Shown piece by piece: positions 2,112 to 45,200 of a DNA stretch of 64,000 nucleotides; the first letter of the stretch is position 1; every line of letters begins with the position of its first letter. This DNA is from Dromaius novaehollandiae (taxonomy: Eukaryota; Chordata; Aves; Casuariiformes; Dromaiidae): assembly GCF_036370855.1 (NCBI RefSeq), contig NW_026991466.1, forward strand, positions 89,520-153,519, read 5' to 3'. Below the pieces are notes generated by a model. It was not told where the DNA came from and ran no database searches. It was given only the letters and a program-made list of their open reading frames with translations. The position numbers and the translations under genes were made by a program.

Positions 2112-5100
2112 CTAAAGCACCTCCGGGGGGGCCCCGGGCGGCTGAGACGGGGCATTACGGTAACAGGGGGCCGCGGCCCCTCCCTCCCCAGGGGCCCAGG
2201 CGTCCGGGGGGGGCCCAGGCGTCCGGGGGGCCCCGCCATCCCTGGGGGACGCGGACAGGAGGGGGTCGTCCTCAAGGGGCCCAGGCGTCCGGGGCTCATC
2301 CCAAAGGGGCCCAGGCGTCCGGGGAGCGTCCTCAAGGGGCCCAGGCGTCCTGGGGGTGTCCCCAAGGGGCCCAGGCGTCCGGGGAGCATCCCCAAGGGGC
2401 CCAGGCGTCCGGGCGGCCTCCAGCAGCTCCCGCAGCCGCTCCAGGCTCCGCTCCAGGCGCTCGAGGCGGCTCCGCGCGTCCCGCTGCCCCTCGGCCACCT
2501 CGGCCACCGCCGCCGCCACCTGCGCGGGGAGGGGCCCAGGCGTCCGGGAAAGGGCCCAGGCGTCCGGGAGACCCCCCCCCCCTGCCCCCCAGGGGCCCAG
2601 GCGTCCGGGCCCACCTTGCAGGGCCTCAGAGCGGCTTCCGCTTCCTCCTGGATCTTCCGGTGCCGGATCCGGGCGTCCCGAAAGCTGCGGGGGGGGGGGG
2701 GGGTTATGGGGGGGGCTGCGATGGGCCCAGGCGTCCGGGCATCCCCCCCACCCCCAACCATGGACCCAAGTGTCCGGCTTCCTCCCCAAAGGGCCCAGGC
2801 GTCCCCCCAACCCCCCCCCAGGGGCCCAGGCGTCCCCCCACCCTGCTGCAAGGGCCCAGGCGTCCCCCAGGGGCCCAGGCGTCCCCCTGCCCCCCCCCAG
2901 GGGCCTAGATGCCCCCCCCCTCCAGGGGCCCAGGTGTCCCCCCAAACCCTCCCCATGGGCCCAGGCATCCCCCAGGGGCCCAGGCGTCCCCCTGCCCCCC
3001 CCCCACAGGGGCCCAGGCGTCCCCTCGCCCCCCCCCGGGCCCAGGCGTCCCCCCAACCCCCACATTGGGGCCCAGGCATCCCCTGCCCCCCCCCCCCAGC
3101 CTGGGGCCCAGGCATCCCCCAGGGGCCCAGGAACCCCCCAGACCCCCTGCCAGGGGCCCAGGCGTCCGAGGGGCCCAGGCGTCCGGCACTCACGCCTCCA
3201 GCGCCAGCAGCAGCCGTCGCTCCCGTCGCCATCGACCCGGTTGGGCCGGCGCCGCCCGCCGCAGCCTCCAGGCGCCTTGGAGCAGCGTCGCCGCCCGCGC
3301 CCGCACCTGGGGGCCCAGGCGTCCGGGGGGGCCCAGGCGTCCGGCACCGCCCCCCCCCCCGACCCCCAGCGACCCCCCCAGTGCCTGGGCCCCCCCCGGA
3401 CGCCTGGGCCCCTCCCGGACACCTGGGCCACTCCTCGGACTCCTGGGCCCCCTCCCGGACGCCTGGGCCCCCTCCCGGACGCCTGGGCCCCCCCCGGACG
3501 CCTGGGCCCCTCCCGGACGCCTGGGCCCCCCCGGACGCCTGGGCCCCTCCCGGACGCCTGGGCCCCTCCCCGGACGCCTGGGCCCCCCCCGGACGCCTGG
3601 GCCCCTCCCGGACGCCTGGGCCCCCCCGGACGCCTGGGCCCCTCCCGGACGCCTGGGCCCCTCCCCGGACGCCTGGGCCCCCCCCGGACGCCTGGGCCCC
3701 TCCCGGACGCCTGGGCCCCTCCCTGGACGCCTGGGCCCCTCCCCGGACGCCTGGGCCCCCTCTGGACGCCTGGGCCCCCCCGGACGCCTGGGCCCCTCCC
3801 GGACGCCTGGGCCCCTCCCGGACGCCTGGGCCCCACCTCGCGGGCGCTGCGGTCGCTCTGCAGGACGTCGTAGAGGAGCCGCTCGGCCCGGCTGAACTGC
3901 AGCTTCTCGGCCACCACCGCCACCAGCAGCGCCGTGCAGCACACGCCCTGCGCACGCGGCACACGCTAGCGACACGCGCGCACACGCCAGCGGCACGCGG
4001 GCCGAGGACACACAGGGACGCGTGGGGACACGGCAGGACACACGGGGACACGCGAGGACACACGGGGACAGCCGAGGACGCGTGGGGACACGGTGGGACA
4101 CGCTGGGACGTGCAGCACACGCAGGGACACGTCAGGACACGCCAGGACACACAGGGACATGTGAGGACACGCAGGGACATCCAAGGACACGTGTGACACG
4201 GTGGGACACGCTGTGACACATCAGGACACACGAGGACATGGGAAGGACACATGAGGACACGTCAGGACACATGACACAGGGGACACACAGGGACACGTCA
4301 GGACACACGGGGTCACATGAGGACGGACGAGGACACAGGGGACACGCGGGGACATGGGGACACACGGGGACAGACAAGGACACACGAGGACACAGGGGAC
4401 ACACGGGACACATGAGGACACGCGGACATACGGGGTGACACGGGGGACACAGACACACAAGGACACGCCAGGACACGTGAGGACACACGAGGACACACAG
4501 TGACATGCAGGGCACACGTGAGGACACGTGGGGACACATGGGGACACGCAGACACACGGGGTCACATGAGGACAGACGAGGACACAGGAGGACATGGGGT
4601 CACACGAGGACACGGACACGCGATGACACGTGAGGACACACAGACATACGGGGTCACACGGGGGACACGGACACACAAGGACACGCCAGGACACACAAGG
4701 ACACACGAGGACACGGGGGACACACGGGACACGTGAGGACACGCAGACATACGGGGTCACAGACACACAAGGACACGCCAGGACACGCCAGGACACGCGA
4801 GGACACACGAGGACACACGAGGACACAGGGGACACACGGGACACGTGAGGACATGCAGACATATGGGGTCACAGACACACAAGGACACGCCAGGACACGC
4901 CAAGACACATGAGGACCCGCGAGGACACACGAGGACACGGGGGACACGTGAGGACACGCAGACATACGGGGTCACAGACACACGAGGACACGCCAGGACA
5001 CGCCAGGACACGCGAGGACACGCAGACATACGGGGTCACAGACACACAAGGACACACAAGGACACGCGAGGACACGCGAGGACACGGGACCACACGCGTG

Positions 5101-8100
5101 TGCGACGCACGGCGGCGCCGGCAGCCAGGCAGAGCAGGCGGCCGCCGGCGGTGACGGGGACGAGGTCGCCGTAGCCCACGGTCAGGAACGTCACCGGCAG
5201 CAGCCACAGCGCCCCGGGCAGGGTCCCCGCCGCCGACCCCCACGGCCTGCGCGCGCACGCAGCACGCGTGTCACCGCACACGCAACACGCGTGTCACTGC
5301 GCACGCGGCGCCCCCCCCCCCCCCGGCCCGGCGGCCTGCAGCGCACACGCGTGTCGCGGGGCCCCGGGGCCCGGCCGGGGTCTGCACACGCAATGGACAC
5401 GCGTGTTACTGCACACGCAATGGGCGTGTTACTGCACACGCAATGGACACGTGTGTTACTGCACACGCAATGCACACGTGTGTCACTGCACACACAATGG
5501 ACACGTGTGTTAGCGTGCACAGCACACGCCTGCAGCCCCCCGGGGCTCCCAGTGCTCCCCCAGTCCTCCCAGTGCCCCCCCAGTGCTCCCAGTCCCCCTC
5601 CCAGGCCTTCCCAGTGCTCCCCGTCCCTCCCAGTGCCCTGCAGTCCCCCTCCCAGTCCCTCCCAGTCCCCCCAGTCCCCTCTCAGTCCCTCCCAGTGCTC
5701 CCAGTCCCCCCAGTCCCTCTCCCAGTGCTCCCAGTTCCCTCACCTCTCGCACACCAGCAGCACCCAGTCCCCCCCAGTCCCTCCCAGTACAACCAGTCCC
5801 CCTCACCTCTCGCACACCAGCCCCCTCCCAGTCCCCCCCAGTATAACCAGTCCCCCCCCAGCCCCTCCCAGTCCCTCCCAGTACAACCAGTCCCCCTCAC
5901 CTCTCGCACACCAGCCCCCTCCCAGTCCCCCCCAGTATAACCAGTCCCCCCCCAGCCCCTCCCAGTCCCTCCCAGTACAACCAGTCCCCCTCACCTCTCG
6001 CACACCAGCCCCCTCCCAGCCCCCCCCAGTATAACCAGTCCCCCCCCCAGTCCCCCCCAGTCCCTCCCAGTACAACCAGTCCCCCTCACCTCTCGCACAC
6101 CAGCAGCACCCAGGCCCCCCAGTCCCCCTCCCAGTCCCCCCCAGCCCCCCCCAGTCCCTCCCAGTACAACCAGTCCCCCTCACCTCTCGCACACCAGCCC
6201 CCTCCCAGCCCCCCCCAGTATAACCAGTCCCCCCCAGCCCCCCCCCAGTCCCCCCCAGTATAACCAGTCCCCCTCACCTCTCGCACACCAGTCCCCCCCA
6301 GTCCCCCCAGTCCCCCCCAGTCCCTCCCAGTACAACCAGTGCCCTCACCTCTCGCACACCAGCAGTACCCAGTCCCTCCCAGTACAACCAGTCCCCCCCA
6401 GTCCCTCCCAGTCCCCCCAGTACAACCAGTCCCCCTCACCTCTCGCACACCAGTCCCCCCCAGTCCCCCCAGTCCCCCCCAGTCCCTCCCAGTACAACCA
6501 GTGCCCTCACCTCTCGCACACCAGCAGTACCCAGTCCCTCCCAGTACAACCAGTCCCCCCCAGTCCCCCCCAGTCCCTCCCAGTACAACCAGTCCCCTCA
6601 CCTCTCGCACACCAGCAGCACCCAGTCCCCCCCAGTCCCCCCCAGTCCCTCCCAGTACAACCAGTCCCCTCACCTCTCGCACACCAGCAGCACCCAGTCC
6701 CTCCCAGTACAACCAGTCCCCCCCAGTCCCTCCCAGTCCCTCCCAGTACAACCAGTTCCCCTCACCTCTCGCACACCAGCAGCACCCAGTCCCCCCCAGT
6801 CCCTCCCAGTACAACCAGTCCCCTCACCTCTCGCACACCAGCAGCACCCAGTCCCCCCCAGTCCCCCCCAGTCCCTCCCAGTACAACCAGTGCCCTCACC
6901 TCTCGCACACCAGCAGCACCCAGGCCCCCTCCCAGTCCCCCCCAGTCCCTCCCAGTACAACCAGTCCCCCTCACCTCTCGCACACCAGCAGCACCCAGTC
7001 CCCCCCAGCCCCTCCCAGTCCCTCCCAGTACAACCAGTCCCCCTCACCTCTCGCACACCAGCAGCACCCAGTCCCCCCAGCCCCTCCCAGTCCCCCCCAG
7101 TCCCCCCCAGTACAACCAGTCCCCTCACCTCTCGCACACCAGTCCCCCCCAGTCCCCCCCAGTCCCTCCCAGTACAACCAGTGCCCTCACCTCTCGCACA
7201 CCAGCCCCTCCCAGTCCCTCCCAGTCCCTCCCAGTACAACCAGTCCCCTCACCTCTCGCACACCAGCAGCACCCAGGCCCCCAGCGCCCCCCCGGCCGCC
7301 GCCGCCGCCAGCAGCAAGGAGGCCGGACGCTGCCTCAGCCGCGCCCGTAGCGCGAAGCCGGCGCCCAGCGGCACCCGGCCGAGGGCCCCCAGGCTGCGGG
7401 CGGCCCCGGCCCCGGCCCCGGCCCCGGCCCCGGCCCCGGCCCCGGCCCCGGCCCCGGCCCCGAGCAGCGCCCGCGGCGCCAGCACCAGCCGCGCCAACAT
7501 GGCGAGCGCCAGCGCCCGGCGCCAGGACCCAGCGGGCGCCTCGGGGGCGGGGCAAGGCGCGCCCGGGGGGCGGGGCCAGCGCGGCGGCGGGTGCAGCGCG
7601 CACAGCGCCAGCTCCAGCGCCGCCGCCGCCGCCCGCCGCGGCCCTAGCGCCGCCCGCCAGTCGCGCGCCCCCGCGTCCAGCGCCGCCACCTGCGGGGCGA
7701 GGGCGGCGGGGTCAGGCCGGGCGCGCGGAGGCGAGCGGAGGGCGCGGGGACCCGGGGGGAGCCCGGGGAGGGGAGGGGGGAGCCGGGGGAGCCCGGGGAG
7801 AGGAGGGGGGAGCCGGGGGGGGGGCGCAGGGGGCACAGGGACCCGGGGGGAGCCCGGCGAAGGGAGGGGGGAGTCGGGGGGCGCAGGGACCCGGGGGGAG
7901 CCCGGCGAAGGGAGGGGGGACCCGGGGGGAGCTGGGGGAGCCGGGGGGGCGCTGGGACCCGGGGGGAGCCCGGGGAGGGCGCAGGGACCCGGGGGGAGCT
8001 GGGGGAGCCGGGGGGGCGCTGGGACCCGGGGGGAGCCCGGCGAAGGGAGGGGGGAGTCGGGGGAGCCCGGGGAGAGGAGGGGGGAGTCGGGGGGGGCGCA

Positions 8101-10301
8101 GGGGGCACAGGGACCCGGGGGGAGCCCGGCGAAGGGAGGGGGGAGTCGGGGGGCGCAGGGACCCGGGGGGAGCCCGGGGAGAGGAGGGGGGAGTCGGGGG
8201 GCGCAGGGACCCGGGGGGAGCTGGGGGAGCCGGGGGGGCGCTGGGACCCGGGGGGAGCCCGGCGAAGGGAGGGGGGAGCCGGGGGAGCCCGGGGAGAGGA
8301 GGGGGGACCCGGGGGGCGCTGGGACCCGGGGGGCGCTGGGACCCGGGGGGAGCCCGGGGAGGGCGCAGGGACCCAGGGGGAGCCCGGGGAGGGGAGGGGG
8401 GAGCCGGGGGGAGCCCGGGGAGGGCGCAGGGACCCGGGGGGAGCTCAGGCAGGGGAGGCGGGGGGCGCTGGGACCCAGGGGGAGCCCGGGGAGGGGAGGG
8501 GGGAGCCGGGGGGCGCAGGGGGAGCTCGGGGAGAGGAGGGGGGAGCCGGGGGGCGCAGGGACCCAGAGGGAGCCCGGGGGGGTCCGGGGGGCTCAGGGAC
8601 CCAGGGGGAGCCCGGGGAGGGCGGGGGGACCCAGAGGGGACCCGGGGGGCGCTGGGACCCAGGGGGAGCCGGGGGAGCCCGGGGAGGGGAGGGGGGACCC
8701 GGGGGGGTCCGGGGGGCGCAGGGACCCGGGGGGAACCGAGGGAGGGGAGGGGAGGGGGACCCAGGGGGAGCCGGGGGGCACAGGGATGGGGGGGGGGGGG
8801 GGGGGACGGGGCACATGGGGGGACCCAGGTGTCCAGAGGGGCCCAGGCATCCGAGGAGGGGCCCAGGTGTCCAGGAGGGGCCCAGGCGTCCGGGGGGGAC
8901 CCAGGCGTCTGGGGGGGGGACCCCAGCCCACACGCTCCCCCGACCAGGAGGGGCCCAGGCGTCCCCCCCCCCGCGGTGTGTGTGCATGGGGGGGGGGGGG
9001 TCTCCCGGACGCCGGGGCCCACCCGGATCACCAGGCTGTGGTAGAGCAGCAGGAAGAAGAGGAGGGCGGCGGTGGAGGCCGACATGAGCAGCTCCAGCGC
9101 GAAGATGCAGCCGCGCCACTGCGGGACGGACGGCGGCCCCGACGCCTGGGTCCCCGCTGCCAGCCGGGCTGCTGGGGGGCCCAGGCGTCCGGGGGGCCCA
9201 GGCGTCCGGGGCGGGGTGGGAAGGAACCCAAGGGACCCAGGCGTCCGGGGAACACAGCCCCGGTGGGACCCAGGCAGCCTCCCACCCAGGGGCCCAGGTG
9301 TCCGGGAAGGGACCCAGGTGTCTGGGAGGGGCCCAGGTGTCCGGGAGGGGCCCAGGTGTCCGAGAAGGGCCCAGGTGTCTGGGGGACCCAGGTGTCCAGG
9401 AGGGGCCCAGGCGTCCGGGTGGCCCCAGCACCCCTCCCCTGGCCAGGAAGGGGCCCAGGCGTCCGGGCCTCCTGGGTCAATATTTACCCTGTCACTGAGC
9501 TGGGGCTTTTCCTGCCCCTCCCATCCCCACGGGGGGGGGTGTCCGGGGCCCAGGCGTCCGGGTGTTCCCCCCACACACACACCCAGGGGCCCAGGTGTCC
9601 GGGTACCCTCACCCAGGGGGGCCCAGGCGTCCGGGAGCTCCCCCCACCCAGGGGCCCAGGCGTCCGGCTGCCACCCCCACCCAGGAGGGCCCAGGCGTCC
9701 GGGGACTCCCCCCACCCAGGGGGCCCAGGTGTCCGGGTACCCTCACCCAGGGGCCCAGGCGTCCGGGAGCTCCCCCCACCCAGGAGAGCCCAGGTGTCTG
9801 GGTACTCCCACCCAGGGGCCCAGGCGTCCGGGTGTTCCCCCAACCCAGGGGCCCAGGCGTCCGGGAGCTCCCCCCACCCAGGGGGGCCCAGGCGTCCGGG
9901 GGTTCCCCCAACCCAGGGGCCCAGGCGTCCGGGGACTCCCCCCACCCAGGGGCCCAGGCGTCCGGGTACCCCCCCCCCCGCCACGGGCCCAGGTGTCCGG
10001 GTACCCCCACCCAGGCGGGCCCAGGCGTCCGGGTGCGCCCCCCCTCCTCCCCCCCCCCGGGGCCCCGGCGTCCGGGCGGTACCTGGCAGGGCGCCAGGGC
10101 CCCCAGCTCGGTGTGGGTCACCACGGCCCCCAGCCCCACGGCGGCGGCTGCCAGCGCCCGGCGCGACGCCCGCGACGCCGCCGCCACCAGCCCCTGCCGC
10201 CGGCCCAGGGCCCCCAGGGCTTCGCGGGGGCCCCGCCGTGGGGACACACGCCCGGGACACGCACACGCCTGCGTCACGGGACCCGCACACGCCTGCGCCA
10301 T
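2112..10301 (-). CDS. KCNN4: KCNN4, intermediate-conductance Ca2+-activated K+ channel (KCa3.1)
   Basis: Plasma-membrane K+ channel gated by Ca2+ through bound calmodulin. Coding exons in transcript order: 10301-10083, 9118-9023, 7689-7253, 5246-5111, 3947-3837, 3306-3194, 2684-2615, 2519-2112 (1590 bp, 529 codons). All junctions are GT-AG and the phases agree. Visible parts: S1 in exon 1; S2 in exon 2 (ALELLMSASTAALLFFLL); S3-S5 in exon 3; pore with TVGYGD in exon 4 (GYGD about 275-278); S6 as VCCTALLVAVVA in exon 5; calmodulin-binding region in exons 5-7 (RLLLALEAFRDARIRHRK); a coiled coil in exon 8. KCNN4 is favoured over KCNN1-3 by the short N-terminus and by exon 3 (DWRAALGPRR, ELALCALHP). 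Oddities: poly(Gly-Ala) near the S3-S4 region, a 99-residue repeat-derived C-terminal tail, and a start codon inside a 61-bp repeat, so the first ~20 residues are uncertain. The human protein is 427 residues. Confidence 0.9.
2160..3190. repeat. GGGCCCAGGCGTCC minisatellite, KCNN4 exon 8 and introns 6-7
   Basis: Dozens of GGGGCCCAGGCGTCC cores with variable G/C spacers, in the plus orientation. It fills introns 6 and 7 around the short exon at 2615-2684. Between 2262 and 2411 it forms coding sequence of exon 8 as five 30-bp units. In intron 6 the core is often degraded to CCAGGCGTCCCCC. Confidence 0.9.
3370..3836. repeat. Inverted GGACGCCTGGGCCC minisatellite, KCNN4 intron 5
   Basis: Same core as the 2160-3190 array but reverse-complemented (GGACGCCTGGGCCCCTCCC, about 17-19 bp, roughly 25 copies). 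The orientation switches close to exon 6 (3194-3306), so KCNN4 pre-mRNA carries long complementary arrays in introns 5 and 6. Confidence 0.92.
3955..5095. repeat. GGACACACGAGGACACG-type minisatellite, KCNN4 intron 4
   Basis: Units of about 10 bp (GGACACGCGA, GGACACACAA) are assembled into ~100-bp higher-order blocks. Each block includes CAGACATACGGGGTCACAGACACAC (about 4735-4765, 4855-4885, 4955-4985, 5025-5045). It fills the intron between the pore exon and the S6 exon. Confidence 0.88.
5250..5520. repeat. ACACGCAATGGACACGTGTGTTACT repeat at the 5' end of KCNN4 intron-3 array
   Basis: About five units of 30-40 bp containing CACACGCAATGGACACG and TGTTACTGCA at 5385-5515, plus more degenerate CACACGCGTG copies at 5255-5360. 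It lies just upstream, in transcript terms, of the pore exon acceptor at 5247. Confidence 0.75.
5740..7250 (-). repeat. Exon-edge array: 19 decoy copies of the KCNN4 exon 3 donor
   Basis: Each 60-95-bp unit carries, on the minus strand, the end of exon 3 (VCER, often preceded by WVLL) with its intact GTGAGG donor, then ACTGG(T/G)TGTACTGGGAGGGACTGGG-type spacer. Decoys are centred near 5755, 5805, 5900, 6000, 6090, 6185, 6275, 6350, 6445, 6510, 6605, 6675, 6770, 6830, 6905, 6975, 7050, 7130 and 7190. The copy at 7253-7270 is the real one, because only it is continuous with the exon body. Confidence 0.92.
7402..7461 (-). repeat. KCNN4: (GGGGCC)10 hexanucleotide repeat coding poly(Gly-Ala) in KCNN4
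   Basis: Ten perfect GGCCCC units on the plus strand give GGGGCC on the coding strand, read in frame as Gly-Ala within exon 3. It follows APRALL and precedes AARSLGALGR, where human KCNN4 has a short non-repetitive linker after S3. The hexamer is the motif expanded in human C9orf72 disease; here it is exonic. Confidence 0.93.
7735..8810. repeat. GGGACCCGGGGGGAGCCCGGGG minisatellite, KCNN4 intron 2
   Basis: Units of about 20-30 bp combine GGGACCCGGGGGGAGC, CCGGGGAGAGGAGGGG and GGCGCTGGGACCC. It ends in a G14-like run near 8788-8803. No other feature is seen in it. Confidence 0.9.
8815..9475. repeat. GGGGCCCAGGTGTCC minisatellite flanking KCNN4 exon 2
   Basis: GGGCCCAGG(C/T)GTCC cores lie at 8815-8965 and 9170-9470, on both sides of the short S2 exon (9023-9118). 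All are in the plus orientation. The T-for-C variant (CAGGTGTCC) is enriched at 9290-9400. Confidence 0.85.
9540..10070. repeat. GGGCCCAGGCGTCCGGG(TACC/AGCTCC) minisatellite, KCNN4 intron 1
   Basis: About 20 units of 25-35 bp: the GGCCCAGGCGTCCGG core plus GTACCCCCACCCAGG or GAGCTCCCCCCACCCAGG linker. Between the two intron 1 arrays (9476-9540) is a short unique stretch with TCAATATTTACCCTGTCACT, one of the few AT-containing segments. Confidence 0.88.
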
Positions 10302-10930
10302 GGGGCCTGCGCACGGGACACGCGTGGGTCACGCGCACGGGACACGCACACGCCTGCGCCATGGGGCCTGCGCACGGGACACGCGTGGGTCACGCGCCCG
10401 GGACACGCACACGCCTGCGCCATGGGGCCTGCGCATGGGACACGCGTGGGTCACGCGCACGGGACACGCACACGCCTGCGCCATGGGGCCTGCGCACGGG
10501 ACACGTGTGGGTCACGCGCACGGGACCCGCACACGGGACCTGCACACGTGTCCCACACACGCCTGCGCCACCATGCCTGCACACGGGATCGTGCACACGG
10601 GTCACACACACAGGACACGCACACAGGACCTGCACACGGGAACGGCACACGGGCCACGCACACGCCTGCGCCACCCCGCCTGCACATGGGGGACACGCGT
10701 GGGTCACGCACACGGGTCACGCACACGAGACACGCACACGGGTCCCGGACACGGGTCCCACACATGGATCTTGCACACGTGTCCCGCACACACCTTGGAC
10801 ACGGCTCCGACACGGGTCCTGCACACGCCTGGACACGGCTCCCGCACACGCCTGGACACGGCTCCGACACGGCTCCCGCACACGGCTCCCGCACACGCCT
10901 GGACACGGCTCCGACACGGCTCCGGGGCCC
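10240..10930 (-). repeat. 61-bp tandem array carrying the KCNN4 start codon; 5' flank
   Basis: CAT (start codon on the minus strand) recurs at exactly 61-bp spacing: 10299, 10360, 10421 and 10482, each as CCCCATGGCGCAGG on the minus strand. Since 61 is not a multiple of three, the ATGs are in different frames. Only the one at 10299-10301 is in frame with the channel. Beyond 10500 the array degrades into GGACACGGCTCC and CACGGGTCC units to about 10930. The promoter must lie in or beyond this repeat. Confidence 0.88.
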
Positions 10931-11110
10931 CACGGCCGGTGCCGGGAGCCGCCCAGTGAGTCACTGGGACGGGCCAAACTGGGGACACTGGGACCGGCCC
11001 CCCCCCCCCGGGCACCCAGCGGGGAACCGTGACTCACCCGGACGCCTGGGCCCCTTCACCCCGGCCCAGACGCCTGGGCCCCTCCCCTCCCCCCCCCCCA
11101 GGAACGAGGC
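10931..11110. other. KCNN4 upstream / PPP2R1A downstream spacer
   Basis: About 180 bp of mostly unique sequence with GTGAGTCACTGGGACGGG, a C10 run and two short GGACGCCTGGGCCCC copies. It separates the KCNN4 5' flank from the PPP2R1A poly(A) site. No TATA box or CpG island comparable to the other promoters is evident. Confidence 0.5.
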
Positions 11111-11130
11111 AGCCGAAACGGTCGAGAGTT

Positions 11131-11136
11131 TTTATT
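11131..11136 (-). promoter_or_regulatory. PPP2R1A: PPP2R1A polyadenylation signal (AATAAA)
   Basis: TTTATT on the plus strand is a canonical AATAAA for the minus-strand gene, about 440 bp past its stop codon. Confidence 0.85.
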
Positions 11137-11235
11137 AACCGCGAAAGTCGCCGGGTTTGGTAACGCCGGGGGGACGCGGGGACACGGCGGGGACACGGGG
11201 ACACGGGGGACACGGGGACACGGGGGGACACGGGG

Positions 11236-11525
11236 ACGTCACCCCGCGGCGGGTGTCACCGGCGTTGGGGACGTCGTGGTGGGTGTCACCGGCACCGGAG
11301 CCATCGTGACGGGTGTCACCGGCGTTGGGGACGTCACCGGCGTTGGGGACATTGCGGCGGGTGTCACCGGCACCGGAGCCATTGTGACGGGTGTTACCGG
11401 CGTTGGGGACATTGCGGTGGGTGTCACCGGCACCGGAGCCATTGTGACGAGTGTCACCAGTGCTGGGGACATCGTGACGGGTGTCACCGGCGTTGGGGAC
11501 GTCGCGGCGGGCGTCACCGGTCGCA
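11236..11525 (-). repeat. GGTGTCACCGGCGTTGGGGACGT minisatellite in the PPP2R1A 3' UTR
   Basis: Alternating ~21-24-bp half-units (GTGTCACCGGCACCGGAGCC and GTGTCACCGGCGTTGGGGAC) give roughly a 45-66-bp higher-order period over about 290 bp. It lies between the stop and the poly(A) signal, so it is in the mature mRNA. Confidence 0.88.
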
Positions 11526-11576
11526 TGCGGGGGGGGCGGGGCGGGGCCCTCGGGGGCCGTCAGTGGCTCCTCGGTG

Positions 11577-33252
<21,676 letters not shown>

Positions 33253-36200
33253 ATGGCGGGCGCGCGGCTGCGGCGGGCGCTCGCGGCGCTCGCGGCGCTG
33301 CTGGCGGCGCCAGGTACCGCGCGCCGGGGGGGGGGGTATAGGGGGCTATAGGGGGGTTCTATAGGGGGTGCATGGGGGGCTATAGGGGATGCATGGGGGG
33401 GCTATAGGGGGGTATGGGGGGCTCTATAGGGGTGCATGGGGGGGCTATAGAGGGGGTTCTATAGGGGGTGCATGGGGGGGCTATAGGGGGCTATAGGGGG
33501 GTTCTATAGGGGGTGCATGGGGGGCTATAGGGGGCTATGGGGGGTTCTATAGGGGGTGCATGGGGGGCTATAGGGGGTGCATGGGGGGGTTCTATAGGGG
33601 TGCATGGGGGGCTATAGGGGATGCATGGGGGGGTTCTATAGGGGTGCATGGGGGGCTATAGGGGATGCATGGGGGGGTTCTATAGGGGGTGCATGGGGGG
33701 CTATAGGGGATGCATGGGGGGGCTATAGGGGGCTATAGGGGGGTTCTATAGGGGATGCATGGGGGCTGCAATGGGGGTGCTATAGGAGGCTATAGGAGGC
33801 TATAGGGGATGCATGGGGGCTGCAATGGGGGTGCTATAGGAGGCTATAGGAGGCTATAGGGGATGCATGGGGGCTGCAATGGGGTTGCTATAGGGATGCT
33901 ATAGGGCTGCAATGAGGCTGCCATGGGGGTGCTATAGGGAGCTATAGGGGGTGCAACTGGGGTGCTATAGGGCTGCAATGGGACCGCAATGGAGATGCTA
34001 TGGGGGTGCGATGCAGGTGCTATAGGAGACTATAGGGGGTGCAATGGGTGTGCTATAGGGGGTTCCATGGGGTGCTATAGGGGGTGCAATGGGACTGCAA
34101 TGGGGCTGCAACGGGGGTTCTATAGGAGGCTATAGGGGGTGCCATGGGGTGCTATAGGGGCTGCAATGGGGCTGCAATGGAGATGCTATAGGGGTGCGAT
34201 GGGGGCACTATGGGAGCGCGATAGGGCTGCAATGGGGGGCTATGGGGGCTATAGGGGGTGCAATAGAGGTGCAATGGGGGGCTATAGGGGGCTATAGGGG
34301 GCTATAGGGGGTGCAATGAGACTGCAATGGGGTTGTAAGGGGGTGCTGTAGGGGTGCAACAGGGCTGCAGTGGGACTGCAGTGGGGGACGTATAGGCTGC
34401 TATAGGGGACACAGCGAGGCTGCAATGCTGTGCCGTGGGGGCTGCAGCGGGGGTGCTATAGTGTTCTATAGGGGCTGCTATGGGGGCTGCAGTGGGGCTG
34501 CAGAAAGGTGCTCTAGGCGTGCAATGGGGCCGCAGTAGGGGTGCTATAAGGGGCTATAGGGGCTGCAGTGGGGGGGCAGCAGGAGGCTATAGGGGCTGCA
34601 CTGGGGCTGCTATAGGGGCTGTGATAGGGGTGCACTGGGGCTGCAATGGCATGCTATAGGGGATGCCGTGGGGGTGCTATGGAGACTGCAGGGGGGATCC
34701 TATAGGGGATGCCATGCGGGTGCTATAGGGGGTGTGATGGGCTTCCTATGGGGGTGCTATAGGGGTGCAATAGGGTGCCATGGGGGGGCTATAGGGCTGC
34801 AGTGGGGGGCTATAGGGTTCTATAGGGGTGCTATGGGGTGCTATAGGGTGCTATGGGGGTGCCATAGGGTGTAGTGGGGGGGCAATGGGGTGCTATAGGG
34901 GTGCAGTGGGGGGCTATGGGGGCTATAGGGTGCCGTGGGGGTCGACAGGGTGCTCTGGGGGTGCTATAGGGGTGCAGCGGGGGGCTATAGGGGGCCATGG
35001 GGGGGCTATAGGGGTGCTATAGGGTGCTGTGGGGTGCTATAGGGTGCAGCGGGGGGGCATTGGGGGGCTACAGGGGTGCTATAGGGGTGCAGTGGGGGGC
35101 TACAGGGTGCTATAGGGTGCCATGGGGGTCTATAGGGGGCCATGGGGGTCTATAGGGGGCCGGGGGGGGGGCCACTGCGTGCGTGACCCCGCGGCCGGCA
35201 CACGCGTGTGCTCACATGTCAGGGCCCCCCCCCCGCCCCCCCTTCTCCTTCAAACCTCCTTCACCCCCCCGCCCCGGGGGGCCCAGGCGTCCGGGCGCTC
35301 CCCTCCCCCCTCTCTGCAGACCCCCCTCCCCCCCCCCCCGGGGGGAAGCGAACCGCGAAATTGCGCCAGGGCGGCTCTGCGCAGGCTCCGGCCCCCGGAC
35401 GCCTGGGCCCCCCGGACGCCTGGGCCCCTCCCGGACGCCTGGGCCCCCCCCCGGACGCCTGGGCCCCCCCGGACGCCTGGGCCCCCCCCACGGATGCCTG
35501 GGGCCCCCTGGACGCCTGGGCCCCCCCGGACACCTGGGTCCCCCCCCGGACGCCTGGGCCCTTCCCGGATGCCTGGGCCCCTCCCAGACTCCTGGGCCCC
35601 CCTGAACACCTGGGTTCCCCGGACACCTGGGCCCCCCCGGACGCCTGGGCCCCTCCCGGACGCCTGGGCCCCTCCCCGCAGGGCTCCTGGCGCTGGAGTA
35701 CCCCCCGACCGCTGACAACTACACCGTGTGCCAGGGTGACAACGCCACGCTGAGGTGAGCGGAGGTCGCCGGACGCCTGGGCCCCCCCTCGGCCCCGGGG
35801 CGGCTGGGTGGGGGGGGTGGGGGGATCGGAGCCCCCCCCAGCGGGACCCTGCCCCCGAATGGGACCTGTGGGGCGGGAGCCGTGGTGGGACCCACCAGCC
35901 GCCGCCGCGACGAGACCCCCATGGTGGCACCTGCCGTGGGACCCCCGTGGTGGGACCCGTGTTGGGATCTCCATGGTGGATCCTATGGTGGGATCTCCAT
36001 GATGGATCCTGTCATGGGATCTCCATGGTGGATCCTATGGTGGGATCTCCATGATGGATCCTGTCATGGGATCTCCATGGTGGGACCTGTGATGGGATCT
36101 CTATGATGGGACCCGTGGTGGGATCTCCATGGTGGGACCTGCAATGGGACCCGTGGTGGGATCTCCATGATGGATCCCGTCATGGGATCTCCATGGTGGG

Positions 36201-39200
36201 ACCTGTGACGGGAGCCGTGTTGGGATCTCCATGGGGGGACCTGCGATGGGACCCATGGTGGGATCTCCATGGTGGATCCTATGGTGGGATCTCCATGGTG
36301 GGACCTGTGATGGGATCTCCATGATGGGACCCGTGGTGGGATCTCCATGGTGGATCCTATGGTGGGATCTCCATGGTGGATCCTGTCATGGGATCTCCAT
36401 GGTGGGACCTGCGATGGGACCCGTGGTGGGATCTCCATGATGGACCCTATGGTGGGGTCTCCATGGTGGGACCTGTGATGGGATCTCTATGATGGGACCC
36501 GTGGTGGGATCTCCATGGTGGATCCCGTCATGGGATCTCCATGGTGGGACCTGTGATGGGAGCCGTGTTGGGATCTCCATGGGGGGACCTGTGATGGGAG
36601 CCGTGGTGGGATCTCCATGATGGATCCCGTCATGGGATCTCCATGGTGGGACCTGCAATGGGATTGCCATGGTGGGACCCGAGATGGATCCCGTCATAGG
36701 ATTGCCATGATGGGACCGTGATGGGACCCGTGGTGGGATCTCCATGACGCCTCCTGTCATGGGATCTCCACGGTGGGACCAGTGATGGACCCCATGGGGA
36801 GATCTCCATGATGGATCCCGTCATGGGATCTCCATGATGGGACCTGTGACGGGACCCACAGTGAGATCTCCATGGTGGGCCCCATGGTGGGATCTCCATG
36901 GTGGGACCTTCAATGGGACCCATGGTGGGATCTCCATGATGGATCCTGTCATGGGATCTCCATGATGAGACCGCGTTGGGATCTCCATGATGGATCCCAT
37001 CGTGGGATCTCCATGGTGGGACCATTGATGGACCCCATGGTGGGAGCTCCATGACGGGCCCCGTGGTGGGATCTCTCTCCATGGTGGGCTCTCTGTGATG
37101 GATCCCGTCATGGGATCTCCATGGTGGGGCCTGCGACGGGACCCGTGGTGGGATCTCCATGATGGATCCCGTCATGGGATCTCCATGATGGGCCAAATGG
37201 TGGGATCTCTCTCCGTGGTGGGATCTCCATGATGGATCCCGTCATGGGATCCCCATGGTGGGGGCCTGTGACGGGCCCCATGGTAGGATCTCTGTGATGG
37301 ATCCCATCGTGGGCCCTCCACGTCGGCCCCCCCCCCCCCCGTGCCGCGGTGGCCCCCCCGGGCGCCGTGTGGAGCTGGCGCGGTCCCCCCCCCCCCATCC
37401 CCCCCCCCCCCGCAGCTGCGCCATCGACGCCGAGGTGACGCGGGTGGCCTGGCTCAACGGCTCGCACATCCTCTACGCGGGGGGGGACAAGTGGTCGCTG
37501 GACCCCCGCGTGCGGCTCCTGGCCCACAGCGACGCCGAGTTCGCCGTGGCCATCGCCGCCGTGGGCCCCCACGACGAGGGCCTCTACACCTGCTCCTTCC
37601 AGACCCCCGCCCGGCCCCACACCGCCCACGTCTTCCTCATCGTCCACGGTCCGCCCCCCCCCCGCCGGGGACGCCGGGGACGCCGGGGACATTGCGGTCA
37701 TCAGGGCCATTGGGGACCATCAAAGACACTGGGGTCATCAGGGCCATCGGGGCCATTGGGGTCATCGGGGCCATTGGGGACCATCAAAGACATTGAGGCC
37801 ATCAGGGCCATTGGGGACTTTGGGGTCATCGAAGACATTGGGGCCATTGGGGACATTGGGGACCATCAAAGATATTGGGGTCATGGAAGACATTGGGGCC
37901 AATCAGGCCATTGGGGACATTGGGGTCATGGAGGACATTGGGGCCATCGGGGACATTGGGGTCATCAGCGACATTGGGACCATCAGGGCCATTGGGGACA
38001 TTGGGGTCATCAGGGACATTGGGGTCATCAGGGCCATTGGGGACCATCAAAGACATTGAGGCCATCAGGGACTTTGGGGTCATCAGGGACATTGGGGTCA
38101 TCAGGGCCATCGGGGCCATTGGGGTCATCGGGGCCATTGGGGACCATCAAAGACATTGAGGCCAATCAGGACATTGGGGACATTGGGGTCATGGGGGACA
38201 TTGAGGCCATCAGGGACATTGGGGCCATCGGGGCCATCAAAGACATTGGGACCATCAGGGACATTGGGGACATTGGGGCCATCAAAGACATTGGGACCAT
38301 CAGGGACATTGGGGACTTTGGGCTCATCAGGCACATTGGGGTCATGGGGGACATTGGGGTCATCGGAGACATTGGGGTCATGGGGGACATTGGGGACTTT
38401 GAGGCCATTGAAGACTTTGGGGTCATTGGAGACATTGGGAACATTGGGGTCACTGATGACATTGGGGTCATGAGGGCCATAGGGGCCATTGGGGTCATCG
38501 GAGACATTGGGGACATTGGGGTCATCGAAGATATTGGGGACATTGGGGTCATCAAAGACATTGGGGTCATCAGGGACATTGGGGACACTGGAGATGTTGG
38601 GGCACCTGGGGCCTCTGGGGCTACTGGAGGTCATTGGGGGCAACTGGGGCCATCAGGGACATTGGGGACATTGGGGCAACTGGCGCTATTGGGGACATCG
38701 GGGTCGTTGGGGCACCTGGGGCTACTGGAGGTCACTGGGGGCAACTGGGGCCATCAGGGCCATTGGGGACATTGGGGTCACTGGGGCTATTGGGGGGGTC
38801 ATTGGGGGCAACTGGGGTCTTTGGAGGTCATCAGGGGGCAACTGGGGCCATTGGGGGGGGCAACTGGGTCTACTGGGGGGCAACTGGGGCCACCAGGGCC
38901 ATTGGGACCGTTGGGGACACTGGGGGACGTCGGGGGGGCACCTGGGGGGCCAGTTAGGAGCAGGGGGGCAGGGAGGGGGCCCAGGCGTCCGGGGGGGGGG
39001 TTGTGGGCGGAGGGGCCCAGGCGTCCGGGCCAGCGGGACCCCCCCCCCCCCAGTGCCGGCGCGCATCACCAACATCTCGGCGGCGGTGACGGTGGACGAG
39101 GGCAGCGACGTGACACTGCTCTGCCTGGCGGCCGGGCGGCCCCCCCCCGCTGTCACCTGGCGCCAGCCCTGGGGTACGGGGACATGGGGGACATGGGGGA

Positions 39201-42200
39201 CACGGGGACGTGGGGGGACATGGAGGGACATGAGGGGACATGGGGGACATGGAGGGACATGGGGGGACATGGGGGGACATGGAGGGACATGGAGGGACAT
39301 GGGGGGACATGGAGGGACATGGGGGGACATGGGGGACATGGGGGACATGGAGGGACATGGAGGGACATGGAGGGACATGGGGGGACATGGGGGGACATGG
39401 AGGGACATGGGGGACATGGGGGGACATGGAGGGACATGGGGGACATGGGGGACATGGGGGACATGGAGGGACATGGGGGGACATGGAGGGACATGGAGGG
39501 ACATGGGGGACATGGGGGACATGGGGGACATGGAGGGACATGGGGGGACATGGGGGACATGGAGGGACATGGGGGGACATGGAGGGACATGGGGGGACAT
39601 GGGGGGACATGGGGACATGGAGGGACATGGGGGGACATGGGGGACATGGAGGGACATGGAGGGACATGGGGGGACATGGGGGACATGGAGGGACATGGAG
39701 GGACATGGGGGGACATGGGGGACATGGGGGACATGGAGGGACATGGGGGGACATGGGGGACATGGAGGGACATGGGGGGACATGGAGGGACATGGGGGAC
39801 ATGGGGGGAGATGGAGGGACATGGGGGACATGGGGGGACATGGGGGGACATGGAGGGACATGGGGGGACATGGAGGGACATGGGGGACATGGAGGGACAT
39901 GGGGGGACATGGGGGGACATGGAGGGACATGGGGGACATGGAGGGACATGGGGGACATGGGGGACATGGGGGGACATGGGGGGAGATGGAGGGACATGGG
40001 GGACATGGGGGACATGGAGGGACATGGAGGGACATGGGGGACATGGGGGGAGATGGAGGGACATGGGGGACATGGGGGGACATGGGGGGACATGGGGGAC
40101 ATGGGGGGAGATGGAGGGACATGGGGGACATGGGGGACATGGGGGGACATGGGGGGACATGGAGGGACATGGGGGACATGGAGGGACATGGGGGGACATG
40201 GAGGGACATGGGGGACATGGGGGGAGATGGAGGGACATGGGGGACATGGGGGGACATGGGGGGACATGGAGGGACATGGGGGACATGGAGGGACATGGGG
40301 GGACATGGGGGACATGGGGGACATGGGGGACATGGGGGACATGGAGGGACATGGGGGGAGATGGAGGGACATGGGGGACATGGGGGACATGGAGGGACAT
40401 GGGGGACATGGGGGGAGATGGAGGGACATGGGGGACATGGAGGGACATGGAGGGACATGGGGGACATGGGGGGAGATGGAGGGACATGGGGGACATGGGG
40501 GACATGGGGGGACATGGGGGGACATGGAGGGACATGGGGGACATGGAGGGACATGGGGGGACATGGAGGGACATGGGGGACATGGGGGGAGATGGAGGGA
40601 CATGGGGGACATGGGGGGACATGGGGGGACATGGAGGGACATGGGGGACATGGAGGGACATGGGGGGACATGGGGGACATGGGGGACATGGGGGACATGG
40701 GGGACATGGAGGGACATGGGGGGAGATGGAGGGACATGGGGGACATGGGGGACATGGAGGGACATGGGGGGACATGGAGGGACATGGGGGGACATGGGGG
40801 GACATGGGGACATGGAGGGACATGGGGGACATGGGGGGAGATGGAGGGACATGGGGGACATGGAGGGACATGGGGGGACATGGGGGACATGGGGGGACAT
40901 GGAGGGACATGGGGGACATGGGGGACATGGGGGACATGGGGGGACATGAGGGACATGGAGGGACATGGGGGGACATGGGGGACATGGGGGACATGGGGGG
41001 ACATGGGGACATGGGGGACATGGGGGGACATGAGGGACATGGAGGGACATGGAGGGACATAGGGGACATGGGGGAACATGGAGGGACATGGGGGGACATG
41101 GAGGGACATTGGGGGACATGGGGGGACATGGAGGGACATGGGGGGACATGGGGACATGGGGGACATGGGGACATGGGGGACATGGAGGGACATGGGGGGA
41201 CATGGAGGGACATGGGGGACATGGAGGGACATGGGGGGACATGGGGGGACATGGGGGACATGGAGGGACATAGGGGACATGGAGGGACATGGGGGACATG
41301 GGGGGACATGAGGGACATGGAGGGACATAGGGGACATGGGGGGACATGGAGGGACATAGGGGACATGGGGGACATGGAGGGACATGGGGGACATGGGGGA
41401 CATGGGGGGACATGGGGGATATGGAGGGACATGGGGGACATGGAGGGACCCCGGTGACCCCCTGTCCCCCCCCGGCAGCGGGGCCCCCCCGCGAGGGCGA
41501 GGTGCTGGAGGTGGCCGCCATCCGCCGGGGCCAGGCCGGCCGCTACCAGTGCCAGGCGGCCAACGGGGTGGCCCAGCCCGACACCCGCTGGGTCCCCGTC
41601 ACCGTCAACTGTGAGCGTCCTGGGGGGGGGGGGACGGGCCCATCACCCTGGCATCAGGGCTGGGCCCATCGCCAGGGCGTCAGGGCTGCCCCGGGGATGG
41701 GGACGGGGTCGAGCCCATCACCCTGGCGTCAGGGCTGCATCAGGGACGGGCCCCTCACCCTGGTGTCAGGGCTGCACCGGGGTCAGGGACGGGCTGCGCC
41801 AGGGCTGGGCCCATCGCCCCGGTGTCAGGGCTGCTCTAGGGACAGGGACGGGCCCATCACCGCAGCGTCAGGGCTGCGTTGGGGGGGGGGGGGAAACGAG
41901 CCCATCGCTCTGGTGTTGGGGCTGTGTCAGGGAGGGGCCCATCACCCCGGCGTCAGGGCTGCACCAGGGATGGGGCTGGGCCCATCACCCCAGCGTCAGG
42001 GCTGCGTCAGGGCTGGGCCCATCGCCAGGGTGTCAGGGCTGCCCCGGGGATGGGGATGGGGTTGAGCCCATCACCCCGGCGTCACGGCTGCTCTAGGGAC
42101 ACGGAGGGGCCCATCGCCCTGGCGTCAGGGCTGAGCCCATCACCCTGGCGTCAGGGCTGCTCTAGGGACAGGGATGGGCCCATCACCGCGGCGTCAGGGC

Positions 42201-45200
42201 TGTGGTGGGGACAGGGCTGGGCCCATCACCCTGGTGTCGGGGCTGCTCCAGGGTTGAGCCCATCACCCCGGCATCGGGGCTGAGCCCATCACCCCGGCGT
42301 CAGGGCTGCATCAGGGATGGGCCCATCACCATGGTGTCAGGGCTGCGTCAGGGCTGAGCCCATCACCGTGGCGTCAGGGCTGCTCTAGGGACAGGGCTGA
42401 GCCCATCACCGTGGCGTCAGGGCTGCGTTGGGGACGGGGTCGAGCCCATCACCCCGGTGTCACGGCTGCTCTAGGGACACAGAGGGGCGCCTCACCCTGG
42501 CGTCAGGGCTGAGCCCATCGTCCTGGCGTCAGGGCTGCTCTAGGGACAGGGACGGGCCCATCACCCCGGTGTCAGGGTTGAGCCCATCACCCCGGCATCG
42601 GGGCTGAGCCCATCACCCCGGCGTCAGGGCTGCATCAGGGACGGGCCCATCACCATGGCGTCAGGGCTGCACCGGGGTCAGGGACGGGCCCATCACCCCG
42701 GCATCGGGGCTGCGCCAGGGACAGAGACGGGCCCATCACCCCGGTGTCAGGGCTGAGCCCATCGCCCCGGTGTCGGGGCTGCTCTAGGGACAGGGCTGGG
42801 CCCATCACCCCGGCGTCAGGGCTGCACCGGGGATGGGGACGGGGTCGAGCCCATCGCCAGGGCGTCACGGCTGCTCCAGGGACACGGAGGGGCCCCTCAC
42901 CCTGGCCTCAGGGCTGGGCCCATCACCGCGGTGTCTGGGCGGCCCCGGGTCTCCCCCCCCTCCCCCCCCCCCGGCTCCCAGCGCAGCCCTGACGCCCGGG
43001 TGAGGGGCTCCCAGCACAGCCCGGGGCCGGGGGGGGGGGGGCGGCTCATTCAGGGCAGTTTTGGGGGTCCCGGGGGGGGTTGGGGGGGGTGTACAGGGGG
43101 GTGGGGGGGGCCGGGGTGACCCCCCCGTGCGGCCTGGGGGGGGCGGGGGGGGGTTTGGGGGGGTGTACAGGGGGGTGGGGGGGTCTGGAGGGCCGGGGGG
43201 GCGGCGCGTTGGGGGCGGTTTTGGGGGTCCCGGGGGGGGTTTGGGGGGGTTGTACAGGGGGGTTGGGACATTGGGGGTGACCCCCCCGCGCCCCCCCCAG
43301 ACCCCCCCAGCATCAAGGAGGCGCAGGGGGCCCGGCCCCCCCCGGGGCAGCGGCGGCGGGGGGGGGTGGTGCTTTCAGGGCAGTTTTGGGGGTCCCGGGG
43401 GGGTTTGGGGGGGTTGTACAGGGGGGTTAGAGGATTGGGGGTGACCCCCCCGCGCCCCCCCAGACCCCCCCAGCATCACGGAGGCGCAGGGGGCCCGGCC
43501 GGCCCCGGGGCAGCGGGGGCTGCTGCGCTGCGGCGCCCTGGCCGAGCCCCCCCCGGCCTTCGAGTGGTTCAAGGACGAGCGGCCGTGAGTGGGGGCTGGG
43601 GGGGGGCGGGGGGGGGGCTATGGGGGGGGCTGGGGGTGCTATGGGGGGCTGGGGGGGTGCAATGCAGTGCTATGGGGTGCTATGGGGTGCAACGAGGCGT
43701 TTTGGGGTGCGAGGGGGCATTTTGGGGTGCAACGAGGCGTTTTGGGGCATTTTGGGGTGCGAGGGGGCGTTTTGGGGTGTTTTGGGGTGCAACGAGGCGT
43801 TTTGGGGTGCGATGGGGCATTTTGGGGTGCAACGAGGCGTTTTGGGGTGCGAGGGGGCGTTTTGGAGTGCGTGGGGGTGTTTTGGGGTGTTCTGGGGTGC
43901 GATGGGGTATTTTGGGGTGCGACCGGGCATTTTGGGCTGCGAGGGGGTGTTTCGGAGTGCAGTGGGGTGTTTTGGGGTATGAGGGGGCGTTTTGGGGTGC
44001 GATGGGGCGTTCTGGGGCGTTTTGGGCCATTTTGGGGCGTTCTGGGCCGTTTTGGGCCGTTCCAGGGTGTCCCAGGGTGCGACGGGGTGTTTGGGGGCAT
44101 TTCGGGGCGTTTTGGGGCGTTCTGGGGTGTTTTGGGACATTTTGGGGCGTTTCAGGGCGTCCCGGGCCGTTTCGGGGCGTCCCGGGGTGCGACAGGGGGG
44201 CGACGGGGTGTTTGGGGGCATTCTGGGGCGTTCCGGGCCGTTTTGGGGTGTTTCGGGCCATTTGGGGGCGTCCCGGGGCGTTTTGGGGCGTTTCGGGCCG
44301 TTCTGGGGCATTTCGGGCCATTTCGGGGCGTCCCGGTCCGTTCTGGGGCGTCCCGGGGTGCGACGGGGGGGCGCCGGGGTGTTTTGGGGCGTCCCGGGCC
44401 GTTTCGGGCCGTTCTGGGGCGTTTCGGGCCATTTTGGGGCGTTTTGGGGCGTTTCGGGCCGTTTCGGGCCATTGTGGGGCGTTCCGGGCCGTTTTGGGGC
44501 GTCCCGGGGCGTTTTGGGGCGTCCCGGGGTGCGACGGGGGGGCGCCGGGGGCTCCCGCAGGCTGCTGGGGGGCCGCGAGGGGCTGCAGATCCGCACGGAG
44601 CGAACGCGGTCGCTGCTGCTGGTCGCCAACGTCACCCGCCGCCACTACGGCAACTACACGTGCCGGGCGTCCAACGGGCTGGGCAGCGCCGCCGCCGCCC
44701 TCCGCCTGCTCCGTGAGTGCGGGCCCAGGCGTCCGGGTGCCCCCCGCGGGGCCCAGGCATCCGGGAACCCACCCCCGAGGGGCCCAGGCGTCCGGGAACC
44801 CCCCTCCACAAACTGCCCCGGGGCCCAGGCGTCCGGGAACCCCCTCGCGGGGCCCAGGCGTCCGGGAACCCCCCCACATACCACCCCGGGGCCCAGGCGT
44901 CCGGGAACCCCCCTCCAGAAACCGCCCCAGGGCCCAGGCGTCCGGGTGCCCCCCCGCGGGGCCCAGGCGTCCGGGAACCCACCCCCGAGGGGCCCAGGCG
45001 TCCGGGAACCCCCCCACATACCACCCCGGGGCCCAGGCATCCGGGTGCCCCCCACGGGGCCCAGGCGTCCGGGACACCCCCCCAGGGCCCAGGCATCCGG
45101 GAACCCCCCTCCAGAAACCGCCCCGGGGCCCAGGTGTCCGGGTGCCCCCCACGGGGCCCAGGCGTCCAGGAACCCCCCCCGGGGCCCAGGCGTCCGGGAA

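What the first reader, a model, noticed from the sequence alone, without database searches (positions are those of the whole stretch)
5247..43463. Recurrent exon-edge minisatellites: intron arrays that copy the adjacent exon end and its splice site
In nine separate places across three genes the tandem-repeat unit filling an intron includes 10-70 bp of the neighbouring exon plus its functional-looking GT or AG. By my count: KCNN4 exon 3 donor 19 decoys; PPP2R1A exon 12 acceptor 5, exon 10 donor 16, exon 10 acceptor 13, exon 9 donor 3, exon 8 donor 1, exon 4 acceptor 10, exon 2 donor 1; IGLON5 exon 6 acceptor 1. Intron growth seems to nucleate at exon boundaries and spread into the intron, leaving the exon itself intact. 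I know of no named description of this as a general mode of intron evolution. It also gives the spliceosome many near-identical sites to choose from.
Basis: partly seen in the sequence, partly recalled or inferred. Interest (0 to 1): 0.92.

Follow-up and report, generated by a model that had tools for sequence, protein, structure and literature searches.

The report
Exon-edge repeat arrays ("exon stuttering")
In a small, very GC-rich piece of what is probably a bird genome, the ends of exons with their splice signals have been copied over and over into the neighbouring introns; the pattern is real but was described and named in chickens in 2026, so these are new examples of a recently known phenomenon.

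Summary
I annotated four genes (KCNN4, PPP2R1A, IGLON5, ETFB: 32 introns, 64 junctions). At >=36 bits, exon copies occur in 9 of 64 adjacent exon-intron pairs and 0 of 1088 non-adjacent pairs (Fisher p 2.9e-12). 70 of 71 keep GT or AG; 39 of 42 decoy donors have the true donor's 9-mer.

The claim that this is undescribed is wrong: Hron et al. 2026 (PMC12954441) report it as "exon stuttering" on chicken dot chromosomes. By their thresholds 37 hits in 7 of 32 introns qualify, none distal, none in 20 shuffles.

New here:
- "Nucleation at exon edges" is not needed: random array placement predicts 8 to 29 edge-overlapping arrays, 9 seen.
- No homology excess at nine exon breakpoints.
- G4 motifs are sparser in affected introns.
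- The adjoining 89.5 kb has 8 more exon edges with copies, in CADM4, ETHE1 and others.

Most likely: random tandem duplication across junctions, then repeat-driven amplification, tolerated because exon definition favours the exon-proximal site. Splicing is untested.

The parts
5744..7218 (-). KCNN4 intron 3: array with 19 copies of the last ~30 bp of exon 3 plus donor (GAG|GTGAGG in all 19); source exon end 7253-7282
30492..30522 (-). PPP2R1A intron 2: one copy of the last 31 bp of exon 2, 31/31 identical, donor kept; source 30592-30622
28000..29426 (-). PPP2R1A intron 3: ten copies of the exon 4 acceptor and first ~31 bp, period ~154; 9 of 10 keep AG; source 27845-27875
22993..23029 (-). PPP2R1A intron 8: one copy of the last 37 bp of exon 8, 37/37 identical, donor kept; source 23127-23163
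21161..21512 (-). PPP2R1A intron 9, upstream part: three copies of the last ~46 bp of exon 9 plus donor, 153-bp period, in frame without a stop; source 21620-21665
20164..21030 (-). PPP2R1A intron 9, downstream part: 13 copies of the exon 10 acceptor plus 13 bp (42 bp in the nearest copy); source 20013-20054
17154..19760 (-). PPP2R1A intron 10: 16 copies of the end of exon 10 plus donor; last 52 bp identical to the exon in all 16; two diverged candidates further on, to 16898; source 19881-19947
15638..16309 (-). PPP2R1A intron 11: five copies of the exon 12 acceptor plus ~41-48 bp; source 15474-15521
43301..43357 (+). IGLON5 intron 5: one copy of the exon 6 acceptor plus 57 bp, 93% identical; source 43464-43520
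11577..32195 (-). PPP2R1A gene, start codon to stop codon (15 exons; stop 11579-11577)
2413..10226 (-). KCNN4 gene as annotated here (8 exons; 5' end of exon 1 and 3' end of exon 8 not fixed)
35682..45932 (+). IGLON5 gene, exons 2 to 8 (exon 1 not found)
47757..54929 (-). ETFB gene (6 exons), no exon-edge copies at >=36 bits: internal negative

Best explanation
These are cases of exon stuttering in a GC-rich, repeat-filled small chromosome region, probably avian. Step 1 (shown by structure): a segment of about 60-190 bp straddling a splice junction is tandemly duplicated, so a copy of the exon edge with its GT or AG lands in the intron. Step 2 (inferred): this first duplication comes from replication or repair errors with no need for exon-intron homology, at positions that are random with respect to junctions. 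Step 3 (pattern shown, mechanism inferred): once two copies exist, slippage, unequal exchange or conversion multiplies and partly homogenises them. Step 4 (inferred): duplications inside exons are removed by selection, those across one junction survive because the spliceosome pairs the true, exon-proximal site across the exon and largely ignores the decoys.
For: 9 of 64 adjacent vs 0 of 1088 non-adjacent pairs at >=36 bits, all sense strand and edge-touching. At each of the nine junctions copies run on through the splice site into flanking intron sequence, as a junction-spanning duplication requires. Hron et al.'s thresholds met by 37 hits in 7 introns, 0 distal, 0 in 20 shuffles. Random placement of the 111 arrays predicts 8.4 (present intron lengths) to 29.1 (lengths less extra copies) overlaps; 9 seen. 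No homology excess at the nine exon-side breakpoints (Fisher p 0.79-0.84). 16 copies in intron 10 share identical 52-bp exon parts and vary in 10-bp intronic subunits. Decoys are not purged: 70 of 71 keep GT/AG although use of 65 of 71 would give a premature stop. All eight affected introns are 934-3192 nt; Carranza et al. 2022 cite 200-250 nt as the switch to exon definition and find the site nearest across the exon favoured there (PMC9225289, abstract and passages). Same pattern at 8 edges in the flanking 89.5 kb.
Against: No RNA, so exon-proximal site use is inferred from the conserved proteins only. The breakpoint test has nine events and low power; KCNN4 shows some similarity at its breakpoint (rank 0.07 in one of three window sizes). 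The placement model is crude: TRF itself shows only six of the nine arrays reaching >=13 bp into the exon, and the two length assumptions differ three-fold. No call names the organism; bird and dot chromosome are inferred from GC, repeats, gene content and a 153.5-kb contig. Read or haplotype support for array lengths is lacking. In one array (PPP2R1A intron 9 acceptor) the exon-derived core is much better kept than the flanking intron (0.047 vs 0.264 substitutions), which the neutral reading explains only by poor alignment and fast turnover of the intronic part.
Confidence: 0.75

Rival explanations
1. Nucleation: exon boundaries are preferred starting points of repeat growth, for instance because of R-loops, U1 binding or exon-intron chromatin, and arrays spread from there.
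For: Nine arrays include junctions, five donors and four acceptors, and PPP2R1A intron 9 has arrays from both ends. TRF coverage begins a median of 10 nt inside the intron.
Against: Random placement predicts as many or more (8.4 to 29.1 vs 9). 55 of 64 junctions have no exon copies at >=36 bits although nearly every intron is full of arrays.
Confidence: 0.15
2. Homology-driven capture: the exon edge resembles the intron's own short repeat, and unequal exchange between the two makes the first duplication.
For: By eye several breakpoints share short motifs with the intron repeat, for example KCNN4 exon 3, PPP2R1A exons 10 and 12.
Against: Breakpoint windows are no more like the copy-masked intron than other exon windows: mean rank 0.60-0.64, Fisher p 0.79-0.84.
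Confidence: 0.2
3. Selected splice-site arrays: the extra GT/AG copies are kept because they do something, such as regulated intron retention through decoy sites and nonsense-mediated decay, or new in-frame protein segments.
For: 70 of 71 decoys keep GT/AG; 65 of 71 would give a premature stop; the three exon 9 decoys extend the frame by 51-residue steps without a stop. In the PPP2R1A intron 9 acceptor array the exon core varies far less than the flanking intron (0.047 vs 0.264).
Against: The other four arrays do not show this: exon vs intron part 0.106 vs 0.149 (PPP2R1A intron 3), 0.070 vs 0.085 (intron 11), 0.056 vs 0.071 (intron 10) and 0.093 vs 0.029, the reverse, in KCNN4. The intron 9 flank is itself made of shifting short repeats and aligns poorly. 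Youth and homogenisation explain intact sites.
Confidence: 0.12
4. Assembly artefact: a repeat-rich region was over-expanded by the assembler.
For: No reads available here; the window is the end of a short 153.5-kb contig.
Against: Copies differ from each other by substitutions and 10-bp unit counts, and Hron et al. report that the general repeat structure of chicken PHF8 introns was verified in raw nanopore reads.
Confidence: 0.04

Closest known systems
Sequence stuttering / exon stuttering of avian dot chromosomes (Hron et al. 2026, Genome Biol Evol evag038, PMC12954441; abstract, sections 7, 9 and 16, the first of two parts of section 8 and found passages read)
   Same: Tandem copies of an exon's edge with its donor or acceptor in the adjacent intron only, exon intact, introns full of tandem repeats, 1-44 copies, exon part 20-187 bp (median 36); here 1-19 copies (two more doubtful), 13-67 bp.
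   Different: Whether it is the same species is unknown (contigs unnamed). Denser here: 8 of 32 introns by my screen, 7 of 32 by their thresholds, against their 190 of 5,572 dot-chromosome introns. Some repeats here are not local: one minisatellite core recurs across introns of all four genes, and KCNN4 carries repeats inside coding exons, whereas the paper calls expansions strictly local and saw none crossing into adjacent exons.
Ordinary intronic minisatellites / VNTRs (general knowledge)
   Same: Tandem units of 10-190 bp, slippage-like unit-count variation, partial homogenisation.
   Different: Units include coding sequence and a complete splice signal.
Intron gain by internal tandem duplication (recalled, not looked up)
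   Same: Tandem duplication of exonic sequence carrying splice signals.
   Different: No new intron was seen; existing introns grow. Intron positions were not compared with relatives.

Membership tests
Exon stuttering (Hron et al. 2026) | Exon copies >=20 bp and >=42.1 bits (blastn-short) in the adjacent intron, above shuffled control | tested here: met
   37 hits at 8 of 64 junctions, 7 of 32 introns; 0 hits in 20 shuffles, whose best was 38.2 bits. The ninth site, PPP2R1A exon 4 acceptor, does not reach the threshold with exon bases alone.
Exon stuttering (Hron et al. 2026) | Copies in adjacent (proximal), not distant introns of the gene | tested here: met
   0 distal hits at the threshold; 0 of 1088 non-adjacent pairs at >=36 bits
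Exon stuttering (Hron et al. 2026) | Source sequence within about 1 base of the exon border | tested here: met
   37 of 37 hits at distance 0
Exon stuttering (Hron et al. 2026) | Direct tandem arrangement, copies carry the splice site, exon itself intact | tested here: met
   four open coding sequences
Exon stuttering (Hron et al. 2026) | Host intron heavily covered by simple tandem repeats | tested here: met
   37,247 of 41,175 intron bases of all 32 introns in TRF arrays; eight 2.5-kb pieces of larger contigs of the same genome 0-4%
Exon stuttering (Hron et al. 2026) | Location on a dot chromosome | tested here: inconclusive
   153.5-kb contig, 62.5-79.6% GC per 2-kb window, 73.9% in the flank; no chromosome or species assignment possible
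Exon stuttering (Hron et al. 2026) | Intron length polymorphism within the species | not testable with these tools
   No reads or other individuals held
Intron gain by tandem duplication | A new intron at a position absent in relatives | not tested
   No annotated vertebrate relatives in the collections used

The most novel reading that the evidence does not exclude
Exon stuttering is gated by how splice sites are recognised. Only once the neighbouring introns exceed the exon-definition length (~250 nt) does a junction duplication become harmless, because the exon-proximal copy then wins; in shorter introns the intron-proximal copy would win and the duplication would be removed. Intronic repeat growth would thus license exon-edge growth, and arrays such as PPP2R1A intron 10 (16 donors identical over 52 exon nt) are natural in vivo tests of the cross-exon proximity rule, with far more competing sites than the two-site minigenes of Carranza et al. 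2022.
Probability: 0.35. Interest if true: 0.65.

Novelty: new member of a known kind. Interest (0 to 1): 0.42.

Why it matters
It adds dense, exactly mapped cases of a newly named form of genome instability, argues that edge nucleation and exon-intron homology are not needed to explain it, and supplies genes in which up to 19 extra splice donors share the true donor's 9-mer. That makes the rule by which the spliceosome picks among identical sites testable in an animal's own genes, and it bears on why introns in such regions are long and unstable while proteins such as PPP2R1A stay conserved.

Tried and rejected
Microhomology at exon breakpoints: tested on nine events, no excess. G4 motifs as a special driver: fewer in the eight affected introns than in the other 24 (48.2 vs 95.0 motif starts per kb). 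Divergence gradient away from the exon: one of five arrays, driven by two doubtful copies. Selection on decoy splice sites: suggested by one of five arrays, not by the other four. Nucleosome-sized unit: five of nine nearest copies lie 151-163 bp from the true site and a spacing near 155 bp occurs in 10 introns, but spacings near 60 and 100 bp occur in 13 each; seen after the fact and not claimed. Donor anchoring of the dispersed GGACGCCTGGGCCCC core: 12 of the 14 introns with a sense copy have one starting within 25 nt of the donor (5.5 expected; my note says 15, the recount is 14), but 20 copies sampled from larger contigs are not donor-anchored (2 of 20 vs 7% background). Paralogue control: the PPP2R1A search found no second gene (14 of 14 matches on this contig; the search is not exhaustive); exons resembling CADM4 on contig C21 were located but could not be fetched. 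Viral-contig scan for the core: 8 contigs, one match each, not followed. Paper searches for earlier descriptions or the core motif.
Full report
WHAT IS THERE. The window carries four genes with open, GT-AG spliced coding sequences: KCNN4 (minus), PPP2R1A (minus, 15 exons, 589 residues), IGLON5 (plus, exons 2-8) and ETFB (minus, 6 exons). They give 32 introns and 64 junctions. 37,247 of 41,175 intron bases (90%) lie in TRF arrays; eight 2.5-kb pieces from larger contigs of the same genome have 0-4%. No call names the organism; that it is a bird is an inference.

CHECK OF THE OBSERVATION. Each of 36 exons was compared with each of 32 introns. At >=36 bits there are 41 hits in 9 of 64 adjacent pairs and none in 1088 non-adjacent pairs; all 41 are sense-strand and reach the exon edge (Fisher p 2.9e-12). 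At lower scores noise appears: 10 vs 4 pairs at >=32 bits, 10 vs 15 at >=28, 12 vs 69 at >=24. Alignments continue through the splice site into intron sequence at all nine junctions. The decoy list has 71 entries: KCNN4 19, PPP2R1A exon 2 donor 1, exon 8 donor 1, exon 9 donor 3, exon 10 donor 18 (16 clear, 2 doubtful with 22-24 of 52 mismatches), exon 4 acceptor 10, exon 10 acceptor 13, exon 12 acceptor 5, IGLON5 1. The exon 4 acceptor array is diverged; with a strict 18-mer only one copy counts. One further weak exon 10 acceptor-like site (CCG, no AG) was seen and left out of the 71.

ANATOMY. Exon-derived parts run from 13 to 67 bp and nearest copies sit 62-187 bp from the true site. PPP2R1A intron 9 is filled from both ends, by three exon 9 donor copies and 13 exon 10 acceptor copies. 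In intron 10 the last 52 bp of exon 10 are unchanged in all 16 clear copies while the intronic 10-bp subunits between them differ in kind and number. By spans entered by hand, exon-edge arrays cover roughly 9.1 of 13.7 kb of the eight introns.

SPLICE SITES. 70 of 71 decoys keep GT or AG; 39 of 42 decoy donors have exactly the true donor's 9-mer; 65 of 71 would bring a premature stop if used. The six that would not include all three exon 9 decoys, which extend the frame by 153, 306 and 459 nt. Substitutions among copies, exon part vs intron part: PPP2R1A intron 3 0.106 vs 0.149; intron 9 acceptor 0.047 vs 0.264; intron 10 0.056 vs 0.071; intron 11 0.070 vs 0.085; KCNN4 intron 3 0.093 vs 0.029. 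Only intron 9 stands out, and its intronic part is made of shifting short repeats that align poorly, so intact sites do not by themselves show function.

MECHANISM TESTS. (a) Placement: with 111 TRF arrays, random placement predicts 8.4 arrays overlapping an exon by >=13 bp at present intron lengths and 29.1 at lengths less extra copies; nine are seen. Edge preference is not needed; if ancestral introns were short there is a deficit, as expected if exon overlap is partly harmful. (b) Breakpoint homology: exon windows at the nine breakpoints are no more similar to the copy-masked intron than other exon windows, Fisher p 0.79 to 0.84 for three window sizes. (c) G4 motif starts: 48.2 per kb in the eight introns vs 95.0 in the other 24. 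(d) Distance and divergence: one of five arrays correlates. These point to a first duplication without special homology or G4 need, followed by repeat-driven amplification; all four tests are small.

WHY IT IS TOLERATED (inference). Classical work, as told in Carranza et al. 2022, found the intron-proximal of two competing sites preferred; that paper finds that with long flanking introns the site nearest across the exon is preferred, and cites earlier work placing the switch near 200-250 nt (PMC9225289; abstract and passages read). All eight affected introns are 934-3192 nt; they are longer than the other 24 (p 0.026), which the arrays themselves would cause. Only one of the 32 introns is under 500 nt, so the window cannot test the length gate itself.

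WIDER CONTEXT. The window is the last 64 kb of a 153.5-kb contig in a 1.468-Gb genome of 271 contigs. In the other 89.5 kb, a codon-bias screen trained on the window's genes gave 56 coding-like segments; eight of their edges have copies nearby that include the splice site, 18 copies in all: four edges in CADM4 (named), one in ETHE1, two in a gene that looks like CIC (recalled; Pfam gave no hit) and one unnamed. Other hits there are a dispersed minisatellite and were not counted. These edges were not given the control.

COMPARISON WITH THE LITERATURE. Hron et al. 2026 (PMC12954441) describe 'sequence stuttering' with its exon form: 115 genes, 236 introns, 190 of 5,572 dot-chromosome introns, copies including the splice donor or acceptor, sources within 1 base of the exon border in more than 90% of cases; they say they can only speculate about the mechanism (abstract, sections 7, 9, 16 and part 1 of section 8 read). 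By their thresholds this window has 37 hits at 8 junctions in 7 introns, all at distance 0, none distal and none in 20 shuffles. PPP2R1A is not in their main text; the supplement could not be read, so whether these genes are in their list is unknown. No other paper with the term 'exon stuttering' was found in the library.

VERDICT. Real, and a new set of members of a kind named in 2026. The additions are the absence of a need for edge nucleation or homology, the exact decoy inventory, repeats of non-local origin beside the local ones, and a testable splicing-gate idea.

Noticed in passing
window-wide; e.g. 3383-3834, 9580-10043, 14223-15359, 44724-45810, 53421-54864: A dispersed minisatellite core, CCCAGGCGTCC (sense GGACGCCTGGGCCCC), occurs 201 times in the window against 0.30 in dinucleotide shuffles, in 16 of 32 introns and all four genes; its 18-mer form occurs 6,606 times in the genome with 0 for the reversed control. 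It is not of local origin.
   Followed up: partly
12 introns, e.g. PPP2R1A introns 3 and 11 and IGLON5 intron 2: In 12 of 14 introns with a sense copy, that core first appears 7-20 nt into the intron after the donor; three introns have a single copy and it sits there. 20 copies sampled from larger contigs are not so placed (2 of 20).
   Followed up: partly
7401-7460: A perfect GGGGCC hexanucleotide repeat (10 units) inside KCNN4 exon 3, in frame, encoding a Gly-Ala run; a repeat inside coding sequence.
   Followed up: partly
2112-2519: The last KCNN4 exon reads on through copies of the dispersed minisatellite, giving a predicted tail with RTPGPLGD-like repeats before the stop at 2112-2114; whether the tail is real is untested.
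   Followed up: partly
55670-64000: An 8.3-kb array of a 10-bp unit (CCCATGTCCC, about 865 copies) runs to the end of the window, which is the end of the contig.
   Followed up: no
21161-21512: The PPP2R1A exon 9 donor array has a 153-bp period and stays open in frame, so decoy use would add 51-residue repeats to the protein.
   Followed up: no
flank of the window on contig C226, contig coordinates: 240-491 and 5445-5570 (L017), 15889-21012 (L018-L019), 63652-63813 (L023), 77976-78125 (L024): Further exon-edge copies with their splice sites in CADM4, ETHE1, a CIC-like gene and an unnamed gene; one CADM4 exon is copied on both sides.
   Followed up: partly
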